38,015 nucleotides of DNA, taken from positions 1-38,015 of the forward strand of contig JAPKZX010000038.1 of assembly GCA_026393575.1 (NCBI GenBank), written 5' to 3'. This DNA is from Actinomycetota bacterium (lineage in GTDB: Bacteria; Actinomycetota; Acidimicrobiia; Acidimicrobiales; Ilumatobacteraceae). The notes beneath the pieces were generated by a model. That model saw nothing but the letters and a program-made list of their open reading frames with translations. It ran no database searches and was not told the DNA's origin. The number at the start of each line of letters is the position of its first letter. Within the stretch, counting starts at the first letter, position 1. Positions 370 through 8,597 of this stretch are shown one piece after another. The translations under genes were made by a program, and so were the position numbers.

Positions 370-752
370 TGGTGGAGCTGGGGGGAATCGAACCCCCGTC
401 CATCAGGCGCTATTCGCCAGTGATACGACCATTCCCGTTGTAGAGCTAACGCAACTCCATCGACGAGTCGACTGATCTCTTGCGAGAACTGCGCAGCGTC
501 TTTCCGCTATGCCATCAGTCTTTCCTAAAGTCAGCTGTCTTTCTCGCCGTCATTCTTTGCTTCTGTTGCCGGGCTGCAATGAATTGGCCCCGTGCGCCAT
601 TGCTGGTCACGATGTCTCTCAACTACCTAACGGATTAGGCAGCAAGAGCGAACTGCTTGTTGGCAATTCTGTTTTTTGCCCCGTTTAACGAATCTGAGCA
701 ATTCGGGTCGCACGTACGAACAACGAAACTGGTGTCGAAACCTGTCAGCCCC
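370..752 (-). ncRNA. ssrA: tmRNA (ssrA)
   Basis: This is transfer-messenger RNA, which rescues stalled ribosomes together with SmpB and tags the unfinished protein for proteolysis. On the minus strand the 5' end reads GGGGCTGACAGGTTTCGAC, the standard tmRNA start. The 3' end is a T-arm (GGGGGTTCGATTCCCCC) followed by AGCTCCACCA, with CCA encoded. The acceptor ends pair GGGGCU with AGCUCC and place a G-U at the third pair, the alanine identity element. The tag reading frame at 679-635 encodes AKNRIANKQFALAA and then TAA, ending in the ALAA degron. The total of 383 nt is normal. smpB lies 54 nt upstream on the same strand, so the two may be co-transcribed; a TACACT box at 779-774 could also be a separate -10 element. 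Confidence 0.96.
635..679 (-). other. tmRNA tag-peptide reading frame
   Basis: This is the resume codon GCA through the stop TAA inside ssrA. It encodes a 14-residue degron, AKNRIANKQFALAA. The FALAA end is the usual recognition signal for ClpXP-type proteases, and a clpP gene is present at 10466-11068. Confidence 0.9.
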
Positions 753-3694: not shown

Positions 3695-4522
3695 ATGACC
3701 GGGACCAACGACCGACCCATTGGGATGTTTGATTCCGGATTCGGCGGACTCACTGTGGCTCGAGCCGTCATCGACGTGTTGCCCAAAGAGAGTCTTGTGT
3801 ACATCGGAGATACCGGTAGATATCCCTACGGGCCGCGACCCGCAAGTGAAGTGCGTGAGTTTGCTTTGGAGATTGCATGGAGTTTGGTGAACGACCACAA
3901 TGCCAAGGCCATCGTTGTGGCATGCAATACAGCGTCAGCTGCCGCATTCAATGAGTTGGCAGATGTGTTACCCGTACCTGTTGTGAGCGTGGTTGAACCT
4001 GGTGCGCGTGCGCTTGCTGTTGCAACCATTGTGAGGCGGGTTGGTGTCATCGGAACTGTTGGCACCATTTCTTCAGGTGCGTATCAGCGCGCGTTAGCCG
4101 ATGTTGATGCATCGCTAGAACTCACAGCAACTGCATGTCCTGGGTTTGTTGAGTTTGTTGAACGTGGCCAAACACATGGTGACGAAGTGGTGTTGCTCGC
4201 GGAAAGACTTTTGGCTCCCGTCATTGACGCAGGGATAGATGCTCTTCTCTTGGGATGCACGCATTATCCCTATTTGTCGCGAGTGATCAGCGAAGTGATG
4301 GGCGCCGGCGTCACATTGGTATCAAGCGCAGATGAAACAGCTTTTGCATTAGCCGAGATGTTGAAAGATGTGGGCCTGTTGTCTGGGTCCGACAAAGACG
4401 GTTCGCGTACCTTCTTGTCATCTGGTGATGTGGAATGGTTTGCAGATTTTGGGCGACGACTTCTTGGCCCTGAACTCTCAAGTGCCAGCCAATGGCAACG
4501 TTCGAGTGGCAAACAGGCGTAA
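3695..4522 (+). CDS. murI: Glutamate racemase
   Basis: MurI converts L-glutamate to D-glutamate for peptidoglycan synthesis in the cytoplasm, without a cofactor. The protein has 275 residues, the usual length. The N-terminal IGMFDSGFGGLT carries the Asp-Ser catalytic neighbours, and YPYGPR follows. The two catalytic cysteines are both present: Cys77 in ACNTAS and Cys188 in GCTHYP. The start ATG begins TGTNDRPIG and follows a -10-like box at 6 nt. It is followed 33 nt later by rph and then rdgB. A murI-rph-rdgB order is common in actinobacteria. Confidence 0.97.
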   Translation: MTGTNDRPIGMFDSGFGGLTVARAVIDVLPKESLVYIGDTGRYPYGPRPASEVREFALEIAWSLVNDHNAKAIVVACNTASAAAFNELADVLPVPVVSVVEPGARALAVATIVRRVGVIGTVGTISSGAYQRALADVDASLELTATACPGFVEFVERGQTHGDEVVLLAERLLAPVIDAGIDALLLGCTHYPYLSRVISEVMGAGVTLVSSADETAFALAEMLKDVGLLSGSDKDGSRTFLSSGDVEWFADFGRRLLGPELSSASQWQRSSGKQA

Positions 4523-4555
4523 CCTGCTCGTTGCTTACATTTCATGGAGGAACAC

Positions 4556-5317
4556 ATGACACGTCCAGACGGAAGAACACCAGACCAATTGCGTCCCATG
4601 TCTTTTCAACGAGATTTCACAGAGATGTCTGCCGGCTCGGTGCTTGTCACTGTTGGCCGCACCCGAGTGTTGTGCACTGCTTCTATTGATGAAGATGTGC
4701 CGCGCTGGATGAAGGGCTCTGGCAAAGGGTGGGTGACTGCTGAATACTCCATGCTCCCTGGTTCTTCACCTGAAAGAGTTGATCGCGAAGCCGCAAAAGG
4801 TAAACAAAGTGGTCGCACTGTAGAAATTCAACGCCTCATCGGTCGCTCATTGCGTGTGGCATGCGATATGCGTGCACTGGGAGAGCGCCAAGTAGTTGTT
4901 GACTGTGATGTATTGCAAGCAGATGGCGGCACACGCACTGCAAGTATCTGCGGTGGCTTTTTGGCACTGCACGATGCACTCACACGGTTAGTGCAAAGTG
5001 GTGCAATCAAGGAAAATCCTCTTCACTCGTATGTTGCGGCCATCTCGGTTGGTGTGTGTAACGGAGTTCCTGTTCTCGACCTTCCATATGTAGAGGATTC
5101 AACTGCAGAAGTAGACATGAATGTTGTGATGCTGCGACCAGTGGGTGGTGGCGAATCACGTTTTGTAGAAGTGCAGGGAACTGCCGAAGGCGTAGCGTTC
5201 TCACGTAACGAACTTGATCAACTTCTTCAGTTAGCAGACTCTGGCCTTCATCGAATTTTTGATCTTCAGTCCGGGCTGTTGTCTGAAGCGCCGCCTGCGC
5301 GTCCGATGTCTCGGTAA
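4556..5317 (+). CDS. rph: Ribonuclease PH
   Basis: RNase PH is a phosphorolytic 3'-5' exoribonuclease that trims tRNA precursors. The protein has 253 residues. It opens with [12 protein letters not shown], followed by [17 protein letters not shown], the [13 protein letters not shown] block and [15 protein letters not shown]. The C-terminal half carries [16 protein letters not shown] and EVDMNVVM, all standard. I start at ATG 4556 because GGAGG at 4546-4550 is spaced 5 nt from it. The in-frame ATG at 4544 overlaps that site and is less likely. A gap of 3 nt separates it from rdgB, so translation is probably coupled. Confidence 0.96.
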
Positions 5318-5320
5318 ACC

Positions 5321-5917
5321 ATGTTGCACATTGTGTGTGCAAGTGTCAATGCACACAAAGTCGCTGAGATGAAACGCTTGATGCCCGACGGGGTGGACTT
5401 GTTGCCGCGGCCTCTCGACTTAAGCGAGATTGACGAAACAGCGCCAACCCTCGAGGGAAACGCAATCATTAAGGCTGTCGAAGTAGCTAACTTCTGTTCC
5501 CAATGGGCGCTCGCTGATGACACAGGTCTAGAAGTTGATGCGTTACACGGAGCACCTGGCGTGCATAGCGCGCGGTTTGCTTCAGACAATGCGTCTGATT
5601 CTGAAAACCGTCAATTGTTGTTGTCGAAAATGGCACACGAAGAAGTACGTTCGGCACGATTTAGAACTGTGGTTGCGCTTGTATCTTCCAATGGCGATAT
5701 GCACTTTGTTTCAGGGGTCTGCGAGGGCATTATTGCAAGAACACAGTCAGGCGTGAACGGATTCGGATACGACTCAGTGTTCATTCCATCTGCAGGTGAT
5801 GGACGCACGTTCGCGGAAATGTCAGATCTTGAAAAAGATGTGTTGTCGCATCGTGGAAAAGCGTTTGCTCAATTGCCTGAATTGTTGGCACGGGTTTTTG
5901 GCTTACCAACCACGTAG
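5321..5917 (+). CDS. rdgB: XTP/dITP diphosphatase (RdgB/HAM1 family)
   Basis: The enzyme hydrolyses non-canonical purine nucleoside triphosphates such as XTP and dITP to monophosphates, which keeps them out of DNA and RNA. The protein has 198 residues. The N-terminal IVCASVNAHKVAEM is the substrate loop, with SVN in place of the usual T/S-x-N. The general-base Asp lies in ALADDTGLEVDAL. FGYDSVF and SHRGKAF are the standard late motifs. It starts 3 nt after rph. Its last 15 nt overlap the 3' end of the convergent aldolase-like gene. Confidence 0.95.
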   Translation: MLHIVCASVNAHKVAEMKRLMPDGVDLLPRPLDLSEIDETAPTLEGNAIIKAVEVANFCSQWALADDTGLEVDALHGAPGVHSARFASDNASDSENRQLLLSKMAHEEVRSARFRTVVALVSSNGDMHFVSGVCEGIIARTQSGVNGFGYDSVFIPSAGDGRTFAEMSDLEKDVLSHRGKAFAQLPELLARVFGLPTT

Positions 5918-6919
5918 GTCAATTGGCCAAACGGCAATAATCTCGCCGAACGAATTGGCGACGTACGCTTCTTCATGTAATGCCATTGTGGGATCAATGT
6001 GTGATGGCGCCACAAATGCTTTGTCGCCAACTTGAGGGCGGGGAGTGCCTTCGTTTGCACTAAAGGTGATGTGTTCGTCCGAGCAAAACCATACGGAATG
6101 TTGATCAATGCTTGGATTGCCATGGTCCATTCCGAGGGATTTCAAACCCACGTCGATGACTGACCACTTGTTGTTGCTAGAGATAACTGTTCCGACTACC
6201 CACATCGCTTGCACAAATGGAATTCCAAGTTGTGCATATTGGGTGTCCATCAATGTGTAACTGCCAGCTTGCACTTCATTCACCGTGGTGCCTGCAAACA
6301 TGTCGTATGTGCCTGTTCCGCCGGCAGAAACTATGTCTCCGCCAACGTCTTCGTGTGCGAGCGCAAGAATCGACATGGCATCGCGCACATTCTTTTTCTT
6401 TTCTTCGCGATCATTCACCATCATGAGATGGCCTTCATAACCCATGACGCCACGCACAGTCATGCCACGTACGCGTGCAGAGTCTGCGAGTCGGCCAGCG
6501 ATGCTGGGGTCACAACCACATCGGGGAAGTCCGACGTTTACATCGATCATGATGTTTTGAATTCCGGCGCGTTCTGCTGCATCGAGGGTTTCTTCGGAAT
6601 CAATAGCGAGGGTGATGAGTGCTTGGTCTTGTGCACTTGCTAACGCTTCTAAACGACGAGGGTCGAGCACTTCATTAGCGAGAAGAAAATCGTTGCCAAC
6701 GCCGGCATGAATCATGCCGAGCACCTCGCGTGGTGTGGCACATGTAAAAGAACTGTGGCCAGCACCTTCCTGTTCGGCGGCGAGGCCAGAACACTTGTGG
6801 GCCTTGATGTGGGGCCGTAGTCGTTTGCCTGGATGAACATCGGCCATGGTGGCGATGTTTTTACGCAAGGCGGCAATATCAATGACAACTGCTGGGGTGG
6901 GAAGGTCGTTTATGTGCAT
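5903..6919 (-). CDS. D-threonine aldolase / D-serine dehydratase-like PLP enzyme (fold type III)
   Basis: This 338-residue protein has the alanine-racemase-type N-terminal barrel, with the PLP lysine (Lys39) in RPHIKAHK. The phosphate-binding segment is SAGGTGTYD. The C-terminal metal site reads SHIDPTMALHE. Its His-x-Asp pair resembles the divalent-metal site of D-threonine aldolase, whereas D-serine dehydratases normally have His-x-Cys. I therefore favour cleavage of a D-3-hydroxyamino acid to glycine plus an aldehyde, but the substrate is not proven. The ATG is only 2 nt after the 3' end of the tRNA-like gene at 6922-6995, and no Shine-Dalgarno is present outside the tRNA. The conserved N-terminus (DLPTPAVVIDIAAL) starts right here, so a later start is unlikely. 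It converges with rdgB. Confidence 0.85.
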   Translation of the reverse strand: MHINDLPTPAVVIDIAALRKNIATMADVHPGKRLRPHIKAHKCSGLAAEQEGAGHSSFTCATPREVLGMIHAGVGNDFLLANEVLDPRRLEALASAQDQALITLAIDSEETLDAAERAGIQNIMIDVNVGLPRCGCDPSIAGRLADSARVRGMTVRGVMGYEGHLMMVNDREEKKKNVRDAMSILALAHEDVGGDIVSAGGTGTYDMFAGTTVNEVQAGSYTLMDTQYAQLGIPFVQAMWVVGTVISSNNKWSVIDVGLKSLGMDHGNPSIDQHSVWFCSDEHITFSANEGTPRPQVGDKAFVAPSHIDPTMALHEEAYVANSFGEIIAVWPIDLRGW

Positions 6920-6921
6920 TG

Positions 6922-6995
6922 TGCCGGTGGAGGGACTCGAACCCCCAACACGCAGTACCTAAAACTGCTGCCTCTGCCAATTGGGCTACACCGGC
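6922..6995 (-). tRNA. tRNA-Leu(UAG)-like gene with a short, class I variable loop
   Basis: The 74-nt cloverleaf reads on the minus strand as follows. The acceptor is GCCGGTG/CACCGGC, with A at position 73. The D-arm is GCC/GGC with an 11-nt loop. The anticodon stem is GCAGT/ACTGC with loop TTTAGGT, giving anticodon UAG (codon CUA). The variable loop is GTGTT, only 5 nt. The T-arm is GGGGG-TTCGAGT-CCCTC. CCA is not encoded. The 3-bp D-stem with its large loop, the anticodon loop and A73 are those of tRNA-Leu. Bacterial tRNA-Leu normally has a long variable arm, which is missing here. It may be a divergent leucine tRNA or a tRNA-like element with another job. It abuts the aldolase gene downstream. 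Confidence 0.85.
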
Positions 6996-7058
6996 GCCTA
7001 AAGAAGGGTACAGCCAGGAGGTAGAGGACAGAGGGGTCAGAGGTGGCAAACTTGACCC

Positions 7059-8597
7059 GTGACAATTACTGACGCATCTTCCCTGAATCTCGCTCTCGAC
7101 GCCACCGCATTGCAAGAGCAACTTGGTCTGGCCAACACCGTGGTGGACCCGGCGTCGCTTGAGAGCAGTGTGAAGCGTTTTGCGGCACAAAAGATTGTGC
7201 TTCCTACTTTTGGTGAGTTGGCAGAACCACGGCTGATCTCACAAGACATCACAAAGGGTGTTGATAAAGACGCCGCCGATCCGCGCAACCTGTTCCGTGT
7301 GCACTGGTACAACGATCTCGATGGCAACCGTGTTGACGTGCCGAACCATGTCGTGTTGCCGTCATCTCTGACGGGAATTGAATCTCCAATCATCGTTGTT
7401 TTTGGTGACCGGTTTCCTATGATCACTGCGCACAAAGTTCTTGCGGCGTATTCCTGTTTCGTTCCTCGAGTAATCACTGGTCAGTTCGATCCAGAGCGCC
7501 ATCGCGCAGTGTGGCCATCAACTGGCAACTATGCACGCGGTGGAATTGCAATCAGTCGACTCATGGGGTCTCGTGGAGTTGCAGTGCTTCCTGCAGGAAT
7601 GTCTCAAGAGCGATTCGATTGGCTTGATAAGTGGGTAACTGACCCCTCCGACATTGTGCGTACCCCTGGTACCGAGAGCAATGTGAAGGAGATCTACGAC
7701 GCATGTAACGAGATGGCGAAAGATCCGGGCAACTTCATTTTGAATCAGTTCTGCGAATTCGGAAACCATGTTGGTCACTACGAAGTCACAGGGCGCGCTT
7801 TGGCGCACGCATTTGAGCATGTAAAGGCAAACGGTCATTCAGACATTCGACTGGCCGCGTTTACTTCGGCAACAGGTTCCGCTGGCACCATTGCTGCTGG
7901 CGACAGATTGAAAGACATCTACGGCACAAAGATTGTGGCTGTTGAAGCGCTTGAATGCCCAACGATGTTGGAAAACGGTTTCGGTGAACACAACATTCAG
8001 GGAATCGGCGACAAACATATTCCTCTGATTCATAACGTCATGAATACAGATGTGGTGGTTGGAGTTTCCGATCGCGCAACTGACGAACTAGACGTTCTCT
8101 TCAATACGCCTGCTGGTCAGCAGTATCTCGCATCCCGTCATGGCTTTAGTGCAGAACTGATTGATGCGTTAACGCATTTTGGATTCTCGGCAATCTGCAA
8201 TGTTCTAGCTGCAATTAAGACTGCAAAGTTGATGGGGTACGGTGCGAACGATGCAATCGTTACCATTGCAACAGATGGTGGCGCTTTGTATCCAAGTGAG
8301 CGCGTAAAGACAATTGCAGACCGTTTCAAGGGTGAATTCACCGCAGTGGATGCAGCAGAAATATTCAGCGAGCATCTGGGTTCAGTGAGCACAGACAACA
8401 TGATTGACTGCACCGAACGAGATCGCAATCGTATTTTCAACCTTGGGTATTACACATGGGTAGAACAGCAAGGAACTCCGCTTGACGTCTTTGAAGCACG
8501 CCGTTCACAGTCGTTCTGGCGCTCGGTGCGTAGCTATGCCCCAGTGTGGGACAACTTGATAACTGAGTTCAATGCTCGTGTTGCCAAGGCTTCCTAG
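7059..8597 (+). CDS. Fold-type II PLP-dependent enzyme (cysteine/threonine synthase superfamily), 512 aa
   Basis: The probable Schiff-base lysine is Lys126 in MITAHKVLAAY. STGNYARGG (154-162) corresponds to the substrate-binding S-x-G-N loop, and SATGSAGTIAAG resembles the glycine-rich phosphate loop. The N-terminal ~100 residues and the C-terminal ~100 residues extend beyond a simple 310-residue cysteine synthase. I do not recognise a precise reaction. The start is GTG 7059 with no close Shine-Dalgarno; AGAGGTGG lies about 14 nt upstream. The gene is followed 18 nt later by a second fold-type II enzyme, so the two may act in one pathway or complex. It is divergent from the tRNA-like gene. 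Confidence 0.75.
   Translation: MTITDASSLNLALDATALQEQLGLANTVVDPASLESSVKRFAAQKIVLPTFGELAEPRLISQDITKGVDKDAADPRNLFRVHWYNDLDGNRVDVPNHVVLPSSLTGIESPIIVVFGDRFPMITAHKVLAAYSCFVPRVITGQFDPERHRAVWPSTGNYARGGIAISRLMGSRGVAVLPAGMSQERFDWLDKWVTDPSDIVRTPGTESNVKEIYDACNEMAKDPGNFILNQFCEFGNHVGHYEVTGRALAHAFEHVKANGHSDIRLAAFTSATGSAGTIAAGDRLKDIYGTKIVAVEALECPTMLENGFGEHNIQGIGDKHIPLIHNVMNTDVVVGVSDRATDELDVLFNTPAGQQYLASRHGFSAELIDALTHFGFSAICNVLAAIKTAKLMGYGANDAIVTIATDGGALYPSERVKTIADRFKGEFTAVDAAEIFSEHLGSVSTDNMIDCTERDRNRIFNLGYYTWVEQQGTPLDVFEARRSQSFWRSVRSYAPVWDNLITEFNARVAKAS

What the first reader, a model, noticed from the sequence alone, without database searches (positions are those of the whole stretch)
6922..6995. tRNA-Leu(UAG)-like gene lacking the long variable arm
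All standard bacterial tRNA-Leu are class II, with a variable arm of 10 or more nt. This cloverleaf has a UAG anticodon, the leucine-type large D-loop with a 3-bp D-stem, a TTTAGGT anticodon loop and A73, but only GTGTT between anticodon and T stems. All stems pair, apart from a G-U in the T-stem. It could be a second, unusual leucine tRNA, one charged with a different amino acid, or a tRNA-like element used outside translation.
Basis: partly seen in the sequence, partly recalled or inferred. Interest (0 to 1): 0.75.

Follow-up and report, generated by a model that had tools for sequence, protein, structure and literature searches.

The report
Short-armed leucine tRNA replacing the standard
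This actinobacterium appears to read one leucine codon with a transfer RNA that lacks the long extra arm textbooks give to bacterial leucine tRNAs, and the same short design occurs in many other actinobacteria and in phages, often in place of the standard gene.

Summary
Window 6922-6995 (minus strand) is an intact cloverleaf with anticodon UAG, a five-base variable loop and A73. It is not a second tRNA: all 42 Rfam tRNA hits of the host genome were read and none is a class II tRNA-Leu(UAG). All 25 genomes of the genus carry it. The same body with UAG, UAA, CAA or CAG anticodons occurs across Actinomycetota, in phages, and in multi-tRNA loci of Cyanobacteria, Bacteroidota and Planctomycetota. 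In 27 of 29 genome-anticodon cases a short gene stands where no class II gene for that anticodon was found; in three further-checked relatives every class II-length tRNA was read, and none is Leu(UAG). Class II tRNA-Leu(UAG) of relatives often sits at the same murI-rph-rdgB locus. CUA codons align with leucine, and 26 of 26 genomes have one LeuRS. The E. coli leucine identity elements are kept; the long arm is not one of them (PMC9976931). Best reading: a working class I-shaped leucine tRNA charged by the ordinary LeuRS. Charging is untested.

The parts
6922..6995 (-). short-arm tRNA-Leu(UAG) gene, 74 nt, CCA end not encoded
6959..6961 (-). anticodon UAG
6947..6951 (-). variable loop GUGUU where class II tRNA-Leu has a long arm
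6970..6986 (-). D arm GCCCAAUUGGCAGAGGC, the shared signature of the short family
7005..7010 (-). TACCCT box 9 bases upstream of the tRNA, possible promoter -10 element (inference); TACCCT in 22 and TACATT in 2 of 25 genus loci
   Evidence: the simple promoter scan found no site
5903..6919 (-). neighbour: alanine racemase N-terminal / D-serine dehydratase-like gene; start codon 2 bases after A73
7059..8597 (+). neighbour: PALP-family gene, divergent from the tRNA
5321..5917 (+). neighbour: rdgB (Ham1 family), marker of the conserved tRNA-Leu(UAG) locus
4544..5317 (+). neighbour: rph (RNase PH)
3695..4522 (+). neighbour: murI-like Asp/Glu racemase gene

Best explanation
It is a working leucine tRNA of class I shape. 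It reads CUA (and probably CUG), is charged with leucine by the cell's single ordinary LeuRS, and stands in for the class II tRNA-Leu(UAG). LeuRS can accept it because its known recognition points (A73, A14, the A15-U48 pair, G18-G19, A20a and the D/T-loop corner) are present and the long arm is not needed. Shown: structure, conservation, absence of a class II UAG gene, a locus shared with class II genes of relatives, leucine at CUA positions, one LeuRS. Inferred: charging with leucine, expression, wobble range.
For: Only UAG tRNA among 42 Rfam hits of G000; all 9 class II-length hits of G003 are Leu(CAA, CAG, UAA, AAG), Ser or Tyr. In G041, G158 (single-contig, 99% complete) and G126 every class II-length hit was read: no Leu(UAG), while a short UAG gene is present. 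Exclusion of short and class II forms for one anticodon in 27 of 29 cases. Same locus as class II in relatives. CTA codons align with Leu in 37 of 59 cases (G003), 20 of 30 (G041), 26 of 43 (window). One LeuRS over the curated cut-off in 26 of 26 genomes. Identity elements from PMC9976931 (passages) present in the window gene.
Against: No charging or expression data. Short CAG genes coexist with class II CAG in G139 and G170, so not every short gene is a replacement. In the window's genus a tRNA-Leu(AAG), if edited to inosine, could also read CUA, so the short tRNA need not be the only CUA reader there. Leu fractions at CTA are slightly below most other Leu codons (0.63 against 0.69-0.74 in G003) on small counts.
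Confidence: 0.92

Rival explanations
1. The tRNA is charged with another amino acid and recodes CUA, as the unusual mitochondrial tRNA-Thr(UAG) of yeast does.
For: The class I shape is foreign to bacterial leucine tRNA, and recoding through a UAG tRNA is known in yeast mitochondria (PMC7609411, passages).
Against: CTA positions align with Leu in G003 and G041, with no other residue dominant. The anticodon loop has the normal 7 bases. Leucine identity elements, A73 included, are kept.
Confidence: 0.03
2. The tRNA serves outside translation (aminoacyl donor, regulatory or decoy tRNA), and CUA is read by an inosine-modified tRNA-Leu(AAG).
For: The window's genus has a tRNA-Leu(AAG), and the tRNA abuts the start codon of the next gene.
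Against: In G041 and G158 the class II leucine tRNAs are GAG, CAG and UAA, so of the leucine tRNAs found only the short one can pair with CUA by standard wobble rules. The short gene replaces a class II gene of the same anticodon.
Confidence: 0.04
3. Pseudogene or assembly error with a lost variable-arm segment.
For: The host genome is a draft (129 contigs, 82% complete).
Against: Same gene in 25 of 25 genus genomes and in single-contig genomes; stem pairs are kept through compensatory changes; 56.1 bits.
Confidence: 0.01

Closest known systems
Bacterial class II tRNA-Leu(UAG)
   Same: Anticodon, A73, D-loop AAUUGGYAGA type, and in relatives the same chromosomal locus
   Different: Long variable arm absent; D stem GCC/GGC instead of GCG/CGC; acceptor stem GCCGGUG or GCCGACG instead of GCGGGCG
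Animal mitochondrial tRNA-Leu (for example human mt-tRNA-Leu(UUR))
   Same: Leucine tRNA without a long arm, charged by a bacterial-type mitochondrial LeuRS, with A73 and A14 as main identity elements (PMC9976931, passages)
   Different: Organelle tRNA with a weakened anticodon branch; here a bacterial gene with a stable cloverleaf
Phage- and array-borne tRNA-Leu genes
   Same: 81 phage records match the window's tRNA; 36 of the 40 listed are annotated tRNA-Leu. Short genes occur in tRNA-rich loci
   Different: Those are accessory genes; in the window it is a solitary chromosomal gene and the only UAG isoacceptor
Yeast mitochondrial tRNA-Thr(UAG)
   Same: Non-class-II tRNA with UAG anticodon in place of tRNA-Leu(UAG) (PMC7609411, passages)
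   Different: 8-nt anticodon loop and CUN recoded to Thr; here a 7-nt loop and CUA aligns with Leu

Membership tests
tRNA (Rfam RF00005) | covariance-model score over the curated cut-off | tested here: met
   56.1 bits against 29
Bacterial class II tRNA-Leu | variable arm of 10 or more nt | tested here: not met
   5 nt, GUGUU
Class I tRNA | variable loop of 4-5 nt | tested here: met
   5 nt; definition from PMC7609411
Leucine isoacceptor (any class) | leucine anticodon and A73 | tested here: met
   UAG and A73
Leucine isoacceptor (any class) | E. coli leucine identity elements A14, A15-U48, G18-G19, A20a | tested here: met
   read from the sequence; elements from PMC9976931. In the 195-sequence set only U48 (190 of 195) and A73 (195 of 195) are free of the search pattern
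Leucine isoacceptor (any class) | its codon means leucine in the host | tested here: met
   CTA to Leu in 37 of 59 and 20 of 30 aligned codons of G003 and G041, 26 of 43 for the window
Leucine isoacceptor (any class) | charged with leucine by LeuRS | not testable with these tools
   only indirect: one LeuRS over the cut-off in 26 of 26 genomes
tRNA pseudogene | broken stems or low score, no conservation | tested here: not met

The most novel reading that the evidence does not exclude
One short leucine tRNA design, carried by phages and tRNA arrays across bacterial phyla with swapped leucine anticodons, has repeatedly displaced resident class II tRNA-Leu genes in Actinomycetota, at their own loci, perhaps because it escapes nucleases or toxins that attack the resident tRNA. 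Leucine tRNAs there are a mixed class I/class II set served by one LeuRS.
Probability: 0.35. Interest if true: 0.78.

Novelty: new variant of a known kind. Interest (0 to 1): 0.62.

Why it matters
[quoted passage not shown] Here are bacteria, some in one genus (G126 short, G351 class II), that differ in whether the same isoacceptor at the same locus has the arm. That makes the arm's role in LeuRS recognition, in separation from serine tRNA, and in attack by tRNA-targeting toxins directly testable. It also matters for tRNA annotation and for tRNA-seq pipelines that class bacterial Leu as type II (for example PMC6297222, passages).

Tried and rejected
Recoding of CUA: rejected on codon alignment. 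A second LeuRS for the short tRNA: none over the cut-off (its lower rows were cut). A hidden class II UAG gene: none among the 42 over-cut-off hits of G000, all read with ARAGORN (one has an unclear anticodon), nor among the class II-length hits of G003 (9), G041 (8), G158 (8) and G126 (9) (the Leu ones of G041, G158 and G126 were read from the pattern output). In the other genomes absence rests on patterns, which do miss genes: class II UAG of G208, G243 and G544 was seen only. A covariance model of the short tRNA was built but not used. A link between LeuRS domain layout and tRNA class was not evident by eye and was not pursued. A tree of short tRNAs was not made: 74 bases, and the pattern fixes the D arm.

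Limits. In the 195 sequences these positions are fixed by the pattern: G10-C12, A14, A15, G18, G19, A20a-C25, U33, A35, R36, R37, G53-C56, R57, A58; C13 was fixed only. Genomes were chosen by me, many because they carry the short gene, and are related, so the Fisher values (UAG 4.7e-5, UAA 1.8e-4, CAA 0.006; UAG 0.0011 without the three genomes completed) are descriptive. Two rows that are not tRNA-like (G119 C12, G411 C3) were dropped and double rows of one gene counted once. Reversed control patterns gave no hit, one and three.

Literature. Ten searches showed no paper describing a short-arm bacterial tRNA-Leu in the listings; the library lacks most subscription papers. Passages only were read of PMC7609411, PMC9976931, PMC12803027, PMC9569102, PMC6297222, PMC10272220, PMC10264068 and PMC11541572. 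A paper likely to touch it, on the cryptic tRNA operon of Anabaena (PMC8421152, known from the reference list), is not held. PMC11541572 says that in M. [quoted passage not shown]

Full report
What is there. On the minus strand at 6922-6995 lies a complete cloverleaf: GCCGGUG UA GCCCAAUUGGCAGAGGC A GCAGU UUUAGGU ACUGC GUGUU GGGGG UUCGAGU CCCUC CACCGGC A. ARAGORN names it tRNA-Leu(tag) and Rfam scores it 56.1 bits, over the 29-bit cut-off. The variable loop has five bases.

Conservation. All 25 genomes of the genus searched hold the gene (24 whole, one cut by a contig end), 84-100% identical to the window's copy; one more turned up. Contigs of equal length in handles and named records (G012:C4 and JAJTFJ010000003.1, 100,076 bases, titled Ilumatobacteraceae bacterium) suggest that the genus belongs to Ilumatobacteraceae; this is an inference.

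The only UAG leucine tRNA. The Rfam tRNA hits of G000 and G003 were listed at E up to 10. All 42 over-cut-off hits of G000 and the 9 class II-length hits of G003 were read. Class II leucine tRNAs are CAA, CAG, UAA and, unusually, AAG; none is UAG. G000 is 82% complete, but G003 (90%), G021 (96%) and G468 (97%) agree, the last two by pattern only, and in G468 CAG was not found. In the relatives G041 and G158 (single contig, 99% complete) and G126, every class II-length hit was identified: Tyr, four Ser, and Leu of the anticodons already seen, none UAG.

A wide family. A pattern for a leucine-anticodon tRNA with this D arm and a short loop hits 34 of 148 genomes of the order and 58 of 396 of the phylum. 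These are lower bounds: G126 and G309 carry a short UAG gene with a D loop one base shorter that the pattern missed. Anticodons are UAA, UAG, CAA and rarely CAG. In named genomes the UAG form is listed in Amycolatopsis, Lentzea, Kutzneria, Nocardioides, Kribbella, Herbidospora, a Corynebacterium and others. In Actinomycetota it is mostly the only tRNA of its locus (up to 8 kb), with exceptions such as Kribbella (6-10 tRNAs) and one Herbidospora (14). In Cyanobacteria, Bacteroidota and Planctomycetota it lies in loci with 2-34 tRNAs. Phages carry it too: 81 phage records match the window's tRNA, and 36 of the 40 listed are annotated tRNA-Leu; the others are two tRNA-Trp, one hypothetical protein and one unannotated stretch (loop length not checked one by one). 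At least 120 viral stretches match the pattern. Of 167 genes read out all have A73. Over 195 distinct sequences 99.3% of stem cells pair against 66% after shuffling.

Replacement, not addition. In 27 genomes read with a general leucine pattern, completed, there are 29 cases of a short gene for a given anticodon. In 27 of 29 no class II gene for that anticodon was found. The two exceptions are short CAG genes beside a class II CAG gene (G139, G170). Class II was found in 0 of 9 genomes with short UAG against 15 of 18 without (12 of 18 by pattern alone), 0 of 12 against 11 of 15 for UAA, and 0 of 6 against 14 of 21 for CAA. Fourteen genomes with a short gene show all five leucine anticodons, each in one class only. 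In the rest one or more anticodons were not found in either class.

Same place in the chromosome. In G411, of the same family, class II tRNA-Leu(UAG) lies between the dehydratase-like gene and the PALP gene beside murI-rph-rdgB, on the same strand as the window's short gene between the same recognised neighbours, with 1.0 kb of other sequence on the dehydratase side. G288 (class II, 2.9 kb on that side) and G309 (short, 23 bases) show the same order. Class II UAG lies within 6 kb of rdgB in 12 genomes read (G411 and 11); for most I chose the stretch knowing both coordinates, but G208, G243 and G544 were fetched around rdgB alone. It does not in G179 (36 kb), G211 and G182 (far), or G170 (another contig). 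Of the 9 genomes with short UAG, 7 have it within 4 kb of rdgB and 2 (G053, G139) on another contig. Named Nocardioides-type loci have it beside rdgB too. G126 (short) and G351 (class II) share a genus. The acceptor stems differ (GCGGGCG, GCCGACG or GCCGGUG), so more than an arm changed; gene replacement or conversion is likelier than deletion (inference).

Function. CTA codons of G003 align with Leu of G411 in 37 of 59 cases (0.63), other Leu codons at 0.69-0.74; the window's in 26 of 43; those of G041, whose other CUN tRNAs are GAG and CAG, in 20 of 30, other well-sampled Leu codons at 0.64-0.76. No other residue takes over. Each of 26 genomes has one LeuRS over the curated cut-off. PMC9976931 (passages) reports that in E. 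coli A73, the A15-U48 pair, G18-G19 and A20a matter for leucylation, that the sequence and fold of the long arm do not, and that minimal tRNAs without it stay active. All these elements are in the window gene. Charging by the ordinary LeuRS is the simplest mechanism; it is inferred, not shown.

What is known. [quoted passage not shown] Ten literature searches showed no contrary report, in a library that lacks most subscription journals. Phage records annotate such genes as tRNA-Leu without remark in the tables seen. One paper implies that some M. tuberculosis leucine tRNAs lack a long loop (PMC11541572). I rate this a new variant of a known kind.

Open. Origin and direction of spread are not settled. 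A mobile design that displaced residents would explain one D arm across anticodons and phyla, but the pattern selected for that D arm, so repeated arm loss with convergence is not excluded.

Noticed in passing
window 6917-6922: The start codon of the dehydratase-like gene (5903-6919) lies 2 bases after A73 of the tRNA; in the 25 genus loci printed an ATG or GTG follows A73 by 1-2 bases. This suggests a leaderless mRNA freed by tRNA 3' processing; reading frame was checked for the window only.
   Followed up: partly
L088 220-304; L096 219-305: The genus has a class II tRNA-Leu with anticodon AAG (also G021 and G468 by pattern) where relatives have GAG; if A34 is edited to inosine it could read CUA.
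   Followed up: no
L073 185-259; L097 234-309: Low-scoring tRNA-like hits (38.7 and 44.7 bits) with anticodons that ARAGORN could not settle.
   Followed up: no
L114; G139 C146 and C182: Short tRNA-Leu(CAG) genes beside a class II CAG gene: the short form also occurs as an extra copy.
   Followed up: no
window 370-752: tmRNA gene, minus strand, tag ANKQFALAA; looks ordinary.
   Followed up: no
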